Origin: Lepisosteus oculatus | Taxonomy: Eukaryota > Chordata > Actinopteri > Semionotiformes > Lepisosteidae | Reading direction: 5' to 3' | DNA length: 64,000 nucleotides | NCBI RefSeq assembly: GCF_040954835.1 | Contig: NC_090698.1 | Location: 50,168,284-50,232,283, forward strand | Shown here: piece by piece, positions 22,696-27,059 of the stretch | Position numbering within the stretch: the first letter of the stretch is position 1 | How the letters are laid out: each line of letters starts with the position of its first letter | Translations under genes and position numbers: made by a program | Notes under the pieces: model-generated | Told to the model about the DNA's origin: nothing | The model's database searches: none | The model's input: only the letters and a program-made list of their open reading frames with translations

Positions 22696-22860
22696 CTTCT
22701 TGGACATTTAATGATTGTGGCGAAGAAGTGTGCTGCTGATGTGGGCCTAACCAAAGGGTATCGCTTGGTTCTGAATGACGGGCCTGATGGGGGACAGGAA
22801 GTGTTCCATCTTCACATCCACGTGCTCGGACAGAGGCAGATGCGCTGGCCCCCTGGCTAA
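22696..22860 (+). CDS. HINT1: HINT1 alternative last exon 3a
   Basis: The 165-bp exon encodes residues 73-126 and a TAA stop. It begins [18 protein letters not shown] and ends WPPG, aligning along its whole length with human HINT1. The catalytic triad HxHxH (His110, His112, His114) and Asn99 are intact. Unlike exon 3b and human, it has Glu at 107 (human Ser), Asp at 100, Gln at 118 and Arg at 122. The acceptor is TGTTTTTTAG in phase 0. A downstream AATAAA is at 22999-23004, followed by GT-rich sequence, so this exon can end the transcript by itself. Differences from 3b fall mostly at silent sites (21 codons silent only, 11 codons changed), which indicates selection on the protein. I call it functional and an alternative to exon 3b. 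The minus-strand frame across it is a shadow. Confidence 0.94.
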
Positions 22861-22998
22861 CATCAGTAACGAGACTGACCTGTGTTTGTGTACCACACAA
22901 ACAGCAGCCATGTCTGACATCGGAATCGCTTCTGTTAAGAGCATTAATATCTGATGCCTCAGTGCTACTTCTTCAGTCTGTTTACTGATAACCTGTCA

Positions 22999-23004
22999 AA
23001 TAAA
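22999..23004 (+). terminator. HINT1: Polyadenylation signal for exon 3a
   Basis: AATAAA lies 139 bp after the exon 3a stop codon, with TG/TT-rich sequence (CTATGTGTATTTGTC) 17-30 bases downstream, as expected for a cleavage site. Confidence 0.75.
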
Positions 23005-25960
23005 AGTTCCTAAGCTCTGGCTATGTGTATTTGTCTTGAGAAGCAACCTGTTCTTTCATAAAGAGAGGTGTGTGTGTGTGATATTACTCATAAGTCCACA
23101 TGGTTGGTACTGTAATTACAATTTCTGAAAACAACTGAATGAGACTTGGAAATGACTTATAGGGGAACAGTATTCATTGTAAGCGGGTATTATAAGCATG
23201 TTTTGGAAGTGTTCTCATCCTAGTGTAAAACTTTGTGCAAATGGCCTAGCTGTAATACAGTATATTATGGTTTCAGGGCTGTTTTAAATAAGGTTCTTCG
23301 ATGATTAGCATTTAACCTAGTTCTTTGTAGTGGTGTGAGTCAATTAAATTTCATTTTTAGTTTAACTTGTATCTTAGAAAAGGTGGCCATCAGTCTAATA
23401 TGTGCAGTCGCTCAGTAGATTTGGGCTGCCAGCAGGGGCTGCTGTTTACTAAAGCATGAATCCCCATTTACAGAAATTGCAGTGTATGATCTTAAATACT
23501 GATGTCTCTGAACATAGAAAAACTAGTGTTACCTGCGATCATACAACCTTTGCAGTTTAATTATTTTAGGAGCAAAACATGCATTTCTATCTCTGAGTTG
23601 GCAACTGTAATGGAATCTATTTCCCCCCCCCCCCACAAAGTTTTGTGGTGGTTTTGTTGGGACCCCCAGATTCATCTTCTCTGTTAACAAAGGTCTTGAA
23701 ACCTTTAGATTGCTAAATATTTCCATACAGACATCTATTCAAACCATAATTGTTAATCTATTCAAAACATAATTGTTTTATTGATAGTTATATGAGAGAA
23801 GGAAAATTAAGAGTGCAAATTCACAAATAGTTTCTGAATATTCAATTGTTTAAGAAGTCTAGTTATATAAGTGGATGTTTTTTTTTGTGCTACACGAGCC
23901 TGGATTGTGTGTTTGAAAGGAAAATATTTGATGTATGAGAGAAAGGTAGCAAATGACTAGATGTTATCCTAGGGGAAGTGTATTAGAGTGTTGGTATTTG
24001 TAAAACCTTTAAGATCTTTATCCCTGTTCTAGAACTTCAAAATGGAAAATGTGTTTGAGTTGACTGAGGCTGTTCTCGTGGAGAGTATATATTTTTTTCT
24101 CATTTTATATGACTCTGGAGTTTTATACACAGCTTTGAGTTAACACTAAAGTAGAACTGAGCCTGGAGAGTTTAGGGGGAAAAGCAATTTAATGTGTTGT
24201 GAATATTTGAAACAAACTGGACAAAATAGATACATAAGATAAAGTATACATGTTAATGTGGATACATGATGATGTTTTGACTGACACTCTTAATTGTGTT
24301 CAACTAGTAGAAGGCCCATAGACACAGAAGCAGTGACATTTGAAAACGTGTGAACTATATGGCTTATGGGAAGCGTATCACAAGCTTTAGCTGAATACGA
24401 CTACTTGTATTAAGAGATTGCAGCTCAATTTAATGTCTTCCAGTGATTTTAATCTGCAAAGTTCTGAAGAGGGGTCATGAAACTAGTACAGGTTCTACCA
24501 CAATAGATTGTTGTTGATGAAAACCCAAACTATCCAAAAGTAATGTAAAATTATTCCTAGAAAATTACGTTTGTCTATTAAAGATCCTGCAGATGACTGA
24601 AATACATCTTCCTTCAAGAATAGTAAGATATGCATCAGCACAAAACGGTTTCAGTAGTGTGTTGCTTCTTGGAAAAGTTGTCAGAGGAAAGGCAACAAAA
24701 AAAAAACATTTTTGCAATGAGTAATAGAAATGACACTGCAATGACCAAATCTGGAACAAAATGTTCTTTACAGATGAATCCAAGTTTGAGATGTTGGGCA
24801 GTAATCCACGGCATTTTTTTTTTCTGAGCAGTCTGGAGAGCACTGTAACACTCAATGTGCAACAGTTATGGCTAAAGCACAGGGGTGGATCATGAGAAGT
24901 GTAGGGTCTTTTCTCAGCCAAAACGGTCGAACTCCAGCTGATGCAGCCGGACTCTGATCCATCATACGATGGCGTCTCATTGGGCAGGAATCCACCTATC
25001 AAAATAAAAGTGACCTCCCCAGCTTGCAGTCAGTGCGTTGAAAACCTCTTTGGAATGTAACGAGGCTGACAGAACACTCAGAAGTTGTGTTCTTCACATG
25101 GTCCTGATCTGAACATAACAGAAGCTTTATGGGCTGACATCACTGCAATGAAAGCTGAATGGTAACCAGACAAAGCGCAGTAATGGGGGAAAAATGGCAT
25201 CCCTTGATTTGTAATATGCAAGGGAGCATGAAAACAAGATTTCAAGCTCTGTGTAAAGAGAAAGGCTCACATATCGATATTCCTAACTGTTTTAATTTCT
25301 CTGCAGATTTTCTCTAATGAGTGTTATATACATTTTTGTCATCTTTTCACAATTATTTCCAGAACTGTATATGGTGTAACTGTTTAAAAGATTTAAGGAC
25401 ATACAGCAGGCATAAATAATGCATGTACTGAAATTGAAAATAAACTTCCTTTCAGAACATAAGAATAGAAGTCATGAGATTAAGTTAATAATGTATGTAT
25501 GAGTGAATGTGGGATTTGGAGGTCTTAAGCTCTTTTCACAGAAAGTCTTGTTCTGAACTATTTCAGAGACTTCTTAAAATATTCGCACGATACTGATGTT
25601 ACTCCCTCTCTTTCACACAGAGGTTTCCTGAGGTCTTACTAATCAACAAATCTTTCCCACGGCAAACAAGATTTGTCCTTCAAAGAACCCGGTGTCGCTG
25701 TAGTCTTTTGCTTTCAATAAACTTCACATGGGGTAATGATGTAAAGATTACAGGAGTCTAAGGGCAGGTGTAAATCTAACATCGTGTTGTGAATAAGGTG
25801 GTACCTAATCTTTAAAAAAATATGTTCTGTTCAGGTAACAGCAAATTGATGGTATACAGTATGTGCTGACTCAGGTGCACCTCTCAAAACTGTTTGGCTA
25901 AAAGATCTGAGCAAAGGATTCTGTTAAGCTCATTTGGTTGAATTATTAAAGAAATTAGTT
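23005..25960 (+). other. HINT1: Interval between the two HINT1 last exons
   Basis: No copy of HINT1 exon 1 or exon 2 is visible here, which argues against a complete second gene. The interval contains a 12-C run (23623-23634) and a Tc1-like remnant (see 24620-25200). It acts as intron sequence for transcripts using exon 3b. Confidence 0.6.
24620..25200 (+). mobile_element. Decayed Tc1/mariner-like transposase remnant
   Basis: In one plus frame, 24745-24790 reads WNKMFFTDESKFEMLG, the first aspartate block of a Tc1-type DDE domain. Near 25101-25150, GPDLNITEALWADI resembles the PDLNPIEHLW block with the second aspartate. Frameshifts and stops separate them. No terminal inverted repeats were found. 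The minus-strand frames here are shadows. Confidence 0.75.
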
Positions 25961-25964
25961 CATT

Positions 25965-26309
25965 GGCAGCATGGTGGTCCACTGGTTAGCATTGCTGCCT
26001 CGGGTTCAATTCTGGACCTGGGGTGCTATCTGTGTGGAGTTTGTATGTTCTCCCCGTGTTCACATGGGTTTCCTCTGGGTGCTCTGGTTTCCTTCCACAA
26101 TCCAAAGACATACTGAACTGGTAGGTTAATTAGCTCCTGGGAAAACTGGCTCTGTTGTGAGTGTGTTTGTCTGTGTGTGCCCAGTGATGGACTGGCATCT
26201 TGTCCAGAGTTTATCCTGCATTGTGCCCATTGCTTGCCAGGATAGGCTGTGGCTGCCCCGGTACCTCGTACAGGGTAAAGCGGTTAGAAAATGGATAGAT
26301 GCATGAATG
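25965..26309 (+). mobile_element. tRNA-derived SINE-like repeat
   Basis: The head has an A-box-like GGTGGTCCACTGGTTAGC and a B-box-like GGGTTCAATTC, followed by the GTTCTCCCCGTGT...GGGTTTCC body. It ends in GCGGTTAGAAAATGGATAGA. Fragments of the same family occur at 9745-9910 and 39138-39262. It lies between the alternative HINT1 last exons. Confidence 0.75.
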
Positions 26310-26894
26310 TACAGTACATGCAAAGTAAGACAAATCATGCACCCATTTCCTTGCATTTTCTTAAAAATAGTAAGGTGGGATTTTGCTGTTCCAACCATAC
26401 CTATAATACTGCTTTAGAACAGAAATATCCATTCAGAAAAAGTTATAAAAGATATGTGCCATCTCTAGACCATCTAGTGAGGTTGTCCCGCACTGTAATA
26501 AATTTCAAAGCTTTGAACAGGAATAGGCAGTTCACACAGCACATCATGCTGTTTCCGAGCTCACACCAAACACTATAATTCAGGACTTTAGGGGACCTAT
26601 CTGAAATGAGCACATGGTTTTTGTCAGGGTAAAAGATCCTTTTAGTGCAGGAAACTAAACATTTTCAAATATATGCAGTATTTTAAAGCTTTCATAATTT
26701 AAGACTGGTGATTTAAGAGCTCTACGAACAGTAGTCTTCATTTTATTATATGCAAAAGTAGTTAATATATTAACTTTTATCGTGTATGTTTTTTTAAATA
26801 TTATTGGTCATCGCCAGGTTCCATGATTTACATAAGCTGCAGGTTTTAATATCCGTGTTCTGTTATTTCTCTAAGTTCACCTCTGTCTTTTCAG
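26310..26894 (+). other. HINT1: Intron sequence before exon 3b
   Basis: No repeat or additional exon was recognised. The right end has the polypyrimidine tract CCTCTGTCTTTTCAG that serves exon 3b. Confidence 0.5.
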
Positions 26895-27059
26895 CTTCTT
26901 GGACACCTGATGATCGTGGCAAGGAAATGTGCAGCTGAAGTGGGCCTTCAGAAGGGCTACCGGCTGGTCGTGAATGAGGGGCCCGACGGGGGGCAGACTG
27001 TGTATCACATTCACATCCACGTTATTGGAGGACGGCAGATGGGCTGGCCTCCTGGTTAA
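26895..27059 (+). CDS. HINT1: HINT1 alternative last exon 3b
   Basis: Second copy of the last exon, again exactly 165 bp, phase 0, with a strong TCTTTTCAG acceptor and TAA stop. It begins [18 protein letters not shown] and ends WPPG. The HIT triad (His110, 112, 114) and Asn99 are intact. Thr107 keeps the hydroxyl of human Ser107, and Glu100, Tyr109, Gly118 agree with human, so this is the more canonical of the two exons. Position 122 is Gly (His in human, Arg in 3a). ATTAAA at 27122-27127 and AATAAA at 27181-27186 follow. Transcripts that skip exon 3a and its poly(A) signal would use it. The minus-strand frame across it is a shadow. Confidence 0.94.

What the first reader, a model, noticed from the sequence alone, without database searches (positions are those of the whole stretch)
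22696..27059. HINT1 has two intact, divergent last exons that look like mutually exclusive alternatives
Both 165-bp exons have their own acceptor, phase 0 entry, stop codon and poly(A) signal, and either one completes a 126-residue HINT1. Their products differ at 11 of 54 residues, while 21 other codons differ only silently, so both have been kept under selection on the protein. No copy of exons 1 or 2 lies between them, which points to terminal-exon duplication with one shared promoter and not to two full genes. Human HINT1 has a single last exon, and I know of no description of this arrangement.
Basis: partly seen in the sequence, partly recalled or inferred. Interest (0 to 1): 0.93.

Follow-up and report, generated by a model that had tools for sequence, protein, structure and literature searches.

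The report
HINT1 gene with two alternative endings
In gar, and by its annotation also in bowfin, the gene for the enzyme HINT1 carries two different last exons, each completing a full protein, and one version alters residues that in the human protein touch a signalling nucleotide and a partner protein; it looks real and old, and its function is untested.

Summary
In a window matching spotted gar (Lepisosteus oculatus), HINT1 exons 1 and 2 are followed by two 165-bp last exons, A (22696-22860) and B (26895-27059), each with acceptor, stop and AATAAA. Their products differ at 11 of 54 residues, with 21 further silent codons (dN/dS about 0.08-0.11). Both proteins are already NCBI isoforms X2 and X1, and bowfin has the same pair on identical residues 1-72. 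The two fishes split over 250 million years ago (PMC8423624). Each exon differs at 6 of 54 residues between them. Five residues separate A from B identically in both fishes; two, E107 and F109, fall in the Ap4A-linked interface of human HINT1, and Y109 also in the MITF interface (PMC6789022). I propose alternative last exons that swap the catalytic half of HINT1, possibly switching Ap4A or partner response; that functional step is inference. Origin is unsettled: a sturgeon HINT1-like protein also has E107 but its own exons 1-2, so an old whole-gene duplicate that lost its first exons is possible, and the exon-3 tree does not exclude a gar-only duplication (p 0.221). No junction reads were seen.

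The parts
15401..15511 (+). HINT1 exon 1, coding part (37 codons), shared by both forms
   Evidence: frame; start of P0003 and P0006
16972..17076 (+). HINT1 exon 2 (35 codons), shared; donor GTAAGT at 17077
17979..18886 (.). long inverted repeat in intron 2 (arms 17979-18228/18637-18886 at 94% and 18223-18329/18529-18635 at 93%) around a weak 5S-rRNA-like core at 18336-18421
   Evidence: any role in splicing is speculation
22696..22860 (+). alternative last exon A (isoform X2): L98, D100, E107, F109, L111; HIT motif HLHIH; stop TAA
22999..23004 (+). AATAAA poly(A) signal of exon A, GT-rich stretch downstream
26895..27059 (+). alternative last exon B (isoform X1): V98, E100, T107, Y109, I111; HIT motif HIHIH; stop TAA
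27181..27186 (+). AATAAA poly(A) signal of exon B (ATTAAA also at 27122)

Best explanation
One HINT1 gene, with one shared start, uses two alternative last exons. Splicing exon 2 to A, with cleavage after 22999, gives isoform X2; skipping A and splicing to B, with cleavage after 27181, gives isoform X1. The choice swaps residues 73-126, the half that carries the histidine triad and C-terminal loop, on constant exons 1-2. Both exons have been kept by purifying selection, most likely since before gars and bowfins split. Form B is the conventional HINT1 (T107, Y109; most relatives have S107, Y109). Form A keeps the triad and W123 but has Glu107 and Phe109. I infer, and have not shown, that A remains a nucleotide-binding or hydrolysing HINT but differs in the Ap4A-linked dimer-dimer interface and MITF-facing surface, so that A, or A-B mixed dimers, resist or cap Ap4A-driven polymerisation and retune partner release. 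Shown here: anatomy, constraint between the two exons, the same pair as annotated isoforms in two genera. Inferred: single start, transcript choice, biochemical effect.
For: Anatomy. Constraint: NG86 omega about 0.08, YN00 about 0.11; 0 of 20,000 neutral simulations as conservative. Conservation: gar X1/X2 and bowfin (Amia ocellicauda) X1/X2, residues 1-72 identical within each species; A differs 6/54 and B 6/54 between gar and bowfin. Five A/B differences (98, 100, 107, 109, 111) have the same state on each side in both fishes. Exon-3 tree joins gar A with bowfin A at 96/86, starred. Split more than 250 million years ago (PMC8423624, passages). S107 and Y109 lie in the human Ap4A-linked interface, K21 and Y109 form the MITF interface, and K21D and Y109D disrupt polymer formation (PMC6789022, passages). 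Glu at the 107 position is native in E. coli HinT (3n1s), which carries the phosphoramidase activity of E. coli lysates, and C-terminal swaps between human and E. coli Hint change model substrate specificity (PMC3130732, passages). Both forms match Pfam HIT equally well (108.8 and 108.6 bits). A has no strong donor.
Against: No RNA evidence was seen: the isoform names look like automated models (naming rule recalled) whose read support I could not inspect, and P0003 lists only ncbi, uniref and nr as sources. The AU test did not reject gar A grouping with gar B and Atractosteus B, as a gar-only duplication would give (log-likelihood 10.85 lower, p 0.221). The alligator gar entry found is B-type and marked partial (P0005). 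Y109F is conservative, and the cited experiments used Y109D. The link to the Ap4A interface was noticed after the differences were known (0.007 for both residues by simple counting, post hoc). No bowfin DNA was available, so per-branch dN/dS is missing. No promoter test was made.
Confidence: 0.75

Rival explanations
1. The pair descends from two complete tandem HINT1 genes in an early ray-finned fish; in the holostean line one copy lost its promoter and exons 1-2, so its last exon was captured by the other gene. This is a rival on origin only; present use is as in the best explanation.
For: Sturgeon protein P0140 (Acipenser oxyrinchus HINT1-like) has E107 with a shorter exon 1 and 5 of 35 residues different in exon 2 from the T107 form P0021; the longest contigs listed for P0140 and P0021 have the same length, 120,284,971, which suggests the same chromosome. 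Bowfin A and P0140 share LVLNDGPHGGQEV. A clade of gar A, bowfin A and P0140 is not rejected (p-AU 0.446).
Against: No remnant of exons 1-2 between A and B, though none would be expected after so long. P0140 and sturgeon T107 forms share CAEEMGLSKGYRL, and exon-3 counts are near equal (P0140 differs at 7 and 9 from bowfin and gar A, 8 from P0021, 9 and 11 from gar and bowfin B), so a sturgeon-only duplicate with convergent E107 is possible. Adjacency in sturgeon was not tested.
Confidence: 0.45
2. Exon A is a decaying or unused duplicate; only B is spliced in mature HINT1.
For: The alligator gar entry is B-type only (P0005); A is the less conventional form (E107, Q118, R122 in gar).
Against: Intact frame and acceptor; omega about 0.1 and 0 of 20,000 simulations; equal 6/54 divergence of A and B between gar and bowfin; annotated in both genera.
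Confidence: 0.06
3. The second exon is an assembly artefact (uncollapsed haplotype or misplaced paralogue).
For: None found.
Against: 41 of 162 nucleotides differ and flanks do not match; the same pair is annotated in bowfin, another genome.
Confidence: 0.01
4. B has its own unrelated first exon and promoter between A and B, making two overlapping genes.
For: A sturgeon HINT1-like model (P0146) has an alternative start before exon 2.
Against: The X1 proteins of gar and bowfin join B to the same residues 1-72 as X2; no HINT1 exon-like stretch lies between A and B.
Confidence: 0.05

Closest known systems
Homologous 3'-terminal exons (human capping protein beta; Drosophila pip)
   Same: Duplicated last exons of one gene, one used per transcript, with separate 3' ends (PMC3228551 and PMC9013439, passages)
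   Different: Other genes, and in pip the 3'UTRs; here the swapped exon holds the catalytic triad and 54 of 126 residues
HINT1 of other vertebrates (adenosine 5'-monophosphoramidase)
   Same: Same family and length; a B-like last exon; beside LYRM7, in head-to-head order (that human HINT1 also neighbours LYRM7 is recalled)
   Different: No listed entry named as teleost or tetrapod has E107 or F109; nearly all have S107 (T107 in the mole P0028) and Y109 (capped lists)
Avian HINTW
   Same: A diverged second HINT form in a vertebrate
   Different: A separate W-linked gene that lacks the HIT motif (PMC12026566, passages); exon A keeps it
E. coli HinT
   Same: Glu at the position of human S107, in GGQEVYHIHMH
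   Different: Different C-terminal loop; bacterial
Sturgeon HINT1-like P0140
   Same: E107, L98, D100 as in exon A
   Different: Its own exons 1-2; Y109 not F109, I111 not L111

Membership tests
HINT1 (HIT superfamily, Hint branch) | HIT domain above the Pfam cut-off in both forms | tested here: met
   PF01230 108.8 and 108.6 bits, cut-off 21.5
HINT1 (HIT superfamily, Hint branch) | HxHxH triad and C-terminal WPPG | tested here: met
   HLHIH and HIHIH, both end WPPG
HINT1 (HIT superfamily, Hint branch) | Place beside LYRM7 (human neighbourhood recalled) | tested here: met
   Four LYRM7-like stretches on the minus strand, 14472 down to 10592 (human query recalled)
HINT1 (HIT superfamily, Hint branch) | Phosphoramidase activity of form A | not testable with these tools
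   Needs an enzyme assay
Alternative last exons (homologous, own poly(A) sites) | Same entry phase, own stop and poly(A) signal, no strong donor | tested here: met
Alternative last exons (homologous, own poly(A) sites) | Both joined to the same upstream exon in mRNA | tested here: inconclusive
   Isoforms X1/X2 in two genera; read support not visible
Mutually exclusive exons in the strict sense | Cluster of internal exons, flanked by further exons | tested here: not met
   Both are 3'-terminal; PMC3228551 sets such clusters apart
HINTW-like partner | Loss of the HIT motif | tested here: not met
   Exon A keeps HLHIH

The most novel reading that the evidence does not exclude
Holostean fishes, and perhaps early ray-finned fishes in general, use a splice and 3'-end choice to exchange the catalytic half of HINT1 between an Ap4A-polymerisable form (T/S107, Y109) and a form whose Glu107/Phe109 surface resists or caps Ap4A-driven filaments and alters MITF release. 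That would be a genetic switch on the Ap4A second-messenger pathway, kept for over 250 million years and absent from the other vertebrates seen here apart from a possible sturgeon counterpart.
Probability: 0.2. Interest if true: 0.85.

Novelty: new variant of a known kind. Interest (0 to 1): 0.6.

Why it matters
Loss of HINT1 is linked to human axonal neuropathy (PMC7934415, abstract in the listing), and how one small enzyme serves as both hydrolase and signalling partner is, to my knowledge, unresolved. A natural pair that differs only in the last 54 residues, with fixed changes at the Ap4A and MITF interface but an intact triad, offers a ready-made separation-of-function test. It would also be an old last-exon alternative that teleosts and tetrapods appear to lack, as far as the capped protein lists show.

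Tried and rejected
Assembly artefact: rejected, 41 nucleotide differences and the same pair annotated in bowfin. Decay of A: rejected as leading reading. Inactivation by S107E in the manner of HINTW: dropped after E. coli HinT was seen to have Glu there natively. E107 as a uniquely holostean state: dropped. Of all 221 proteins returned by the three searches (P0003-P0223), position 107 is S in 188, T in 20, E in 11 and A in 2; position 109 is Y in 200, F in 12, other in 9 (an earlier count with a stricter motif, left 7 of them out). The E proteins are gar X2, bowfin X2, sturgeon P0140, three amphioxus entries, two unnamed ORFs (P0155, P0163) that seem to run from intron into an exon-3-like stretch, and three unnamed proteins (P0208, P0210, P0223). 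Relic search for exons 1-2 between A and B: nothing above the highest of 30 shuffles. Own-genome search: not completed. Structure model of A: mean pLDDT 69 on 19 sequences, too weak to use further. LWL85 failed.

Limits: each protein search lists only the best 120 hits of 5384, 6106 and 285, from 90% clusters. The tree used 35 rows chosen by me out of 221, with 54 columns; 15 of 29 inner branches are open. Papers: no description of a HINT1 exon pair appeared in the listings (20 of 34,173 listed; 25 of 31; 1 of 1; 15 of 820, none holding 'hint1'; 12 of 62; 15 of 57; 1 of 1; 8 of 3,978, none holding 'hint1'; 10 of 1,964); (10 of 1,981) concerned HINTW. Open-access papers only. 'HINT1' does not occur in the bowfin genome paper or in PMC9741552; PMC11349198 gave no residue numbers.

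Full report
What is there. The window holds a HINT1 gene on the plus strand: coding exon 1 at 15401-15511, exon 2 at 16972-17076, and two last exons, A at 22696-22860 and B at 26895-27059. Each last exon begins after a good acceptor, enters in phase 0, ends in TAA and is followed by AATAAA (22999 and 27181). Either completes a 126-residue protein with an intact histidine triad. The proteins are 100% identical to NCBI's HINT1 isoforms X2 (A) and X1 (B) of Lepisosteus oculatus. LYRM7-like exons lie head to head upstream.

Is it more than chance. The two exons differ at 41 of 162 coding bases, 26 of them at third positions, with 11 replaced and 21 silently changed codons. NG86 gives dN 0.133 and dS 1.65, YN00 0.153 and 1.37. 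None of 20,000 neutral simulations with 41 changes was as conservative, and 70% acquired a stop. Similarity ends at about the exon borders (173 bp), which fits great age.

Conservation. Bowfin (Amia ocellicauda) has the same pair: X2 with E107 and F109 and X1 with T107 and Y109, on identical residues 1-72. Between gar and bowfin, A differs at 6 of 54 residues and B at 6 of 54. Five positions (98, 100, 107, 109, 111) separate A from B in the same way in both fishes. A tree of exon 3 from 35 proteins, chosen out of 221, joins gar A with bowfin A at 96/86. Against this, the AU test does not reject gar A grouping with gar B and Atractosteus B (log-likelihood 10.85 lower, p 0.221), since 54 columns carry little information. 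The bowfin genome paper puts the split at more than 250 million years (PMC8423624, passages). The alligator gar record found is partial and B-type (P0005), so A was not confirmed in that genus.

Origin. That lack is real, but a sturgeon HINT1-like protein, P0140, has E107 together with its own exon 1 and a different exon 2, and its longest listed contig has the same length as that of the T107 sturgeon protein P0021. An old tandem gene pair that was fused in holosteans by loss of inner exons therefore remains open. A clade of gar A, bowfin A and P0140 is not rejected (p-AU 0.446), yet P0140 also shares a stretch with sturgeon T107 forms, so convergence or conversion is possible. Glu107 is not confined to vertebrates: 11 of the 221 returned proteins have it, three of them amphioxus.

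How it most likely works. The choice is between splicing to A with cleavage after 22999 and running on to B; no GT in exon A and its 3'UTR scores as high as the donors of exons 1 and 2, so using A should end the message. This is an alternative last exon and, by the definition in PMC3228551 (passages), not a strict mutually exclusive exon cluster. The swapped half holds the triad and C-terminal loop; swapping C-termini between human and E. coli Hint changes model substrate specificity (PMC3130732, passages). In human HINT1 the Ap4A-linked dimer-dimer interface is D16, I18, K21, H59, Q62, S107 and Y109, MITF contacts K21 and Y109, and Y109D disrupts polymer formation (PMC6789022, passages). Only two of the seven interface residues lie in exon 3, and both are among the five fixed A/B differences (0.007 by simple counting; found after the fact). 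Glu at 107 is not inactivating as such, because E. coli HinT has it. I therefore infer that A is a live HINT with altered Ap4A or partner response, and that mixed dimers may matter. No transcript or enzyme data were available to test this.

Known or new. Homologous last exons with separate 3' ends are a known kind (human capping protein beta, Drosophila pip). The HINT1 pair is in NCBI as isoforms X1 and X2, and the paper listings I saw held no description (capped lists, open-access papers only). I class it as a new variant of a known kind.

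Noticed in passing
17979-18886: Arms of about 350 bp of a 93-94% inverted repeat inside HINT1 intron 2, around a core weakly resembling 5S rRNA (18336-18421, 27.6 bits, below the Rfam cut-off of 38); looks like two opposed 5S-derived mobile element copies and could form a long hairpin in the transcript.
   Followed up: partly
14472-10592 (minus strand): LYRM7-like exons head to head with HINT1, which may mean a shared two-way promoter at about 14.7-15.4 kb.
   Followed up: partly
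P0140 (Acipenser), compared with P0021: Sturgeon HINT1-like protein with E107 and its own exons 1-2, on a contig of the same length as the T107 form.
   Followed up: partly
P0155, P0163: Two unnamed 75-76-residue ORFs (source ena) that seem to run from intron into an exon-3-like stretch with [11 protein letters not shown]; the same exon 3 border may be kept in distant organisms.
   Followed up: no
P0198, P0199, P0201: Amphioxus HINT1-like proteins have E107 and F109 with differing starts, so E107/F109 may be an old animal state.
   Followed up: no
40689-40770: A perfect TAA repeat of 27 copies.
   Followed up: no
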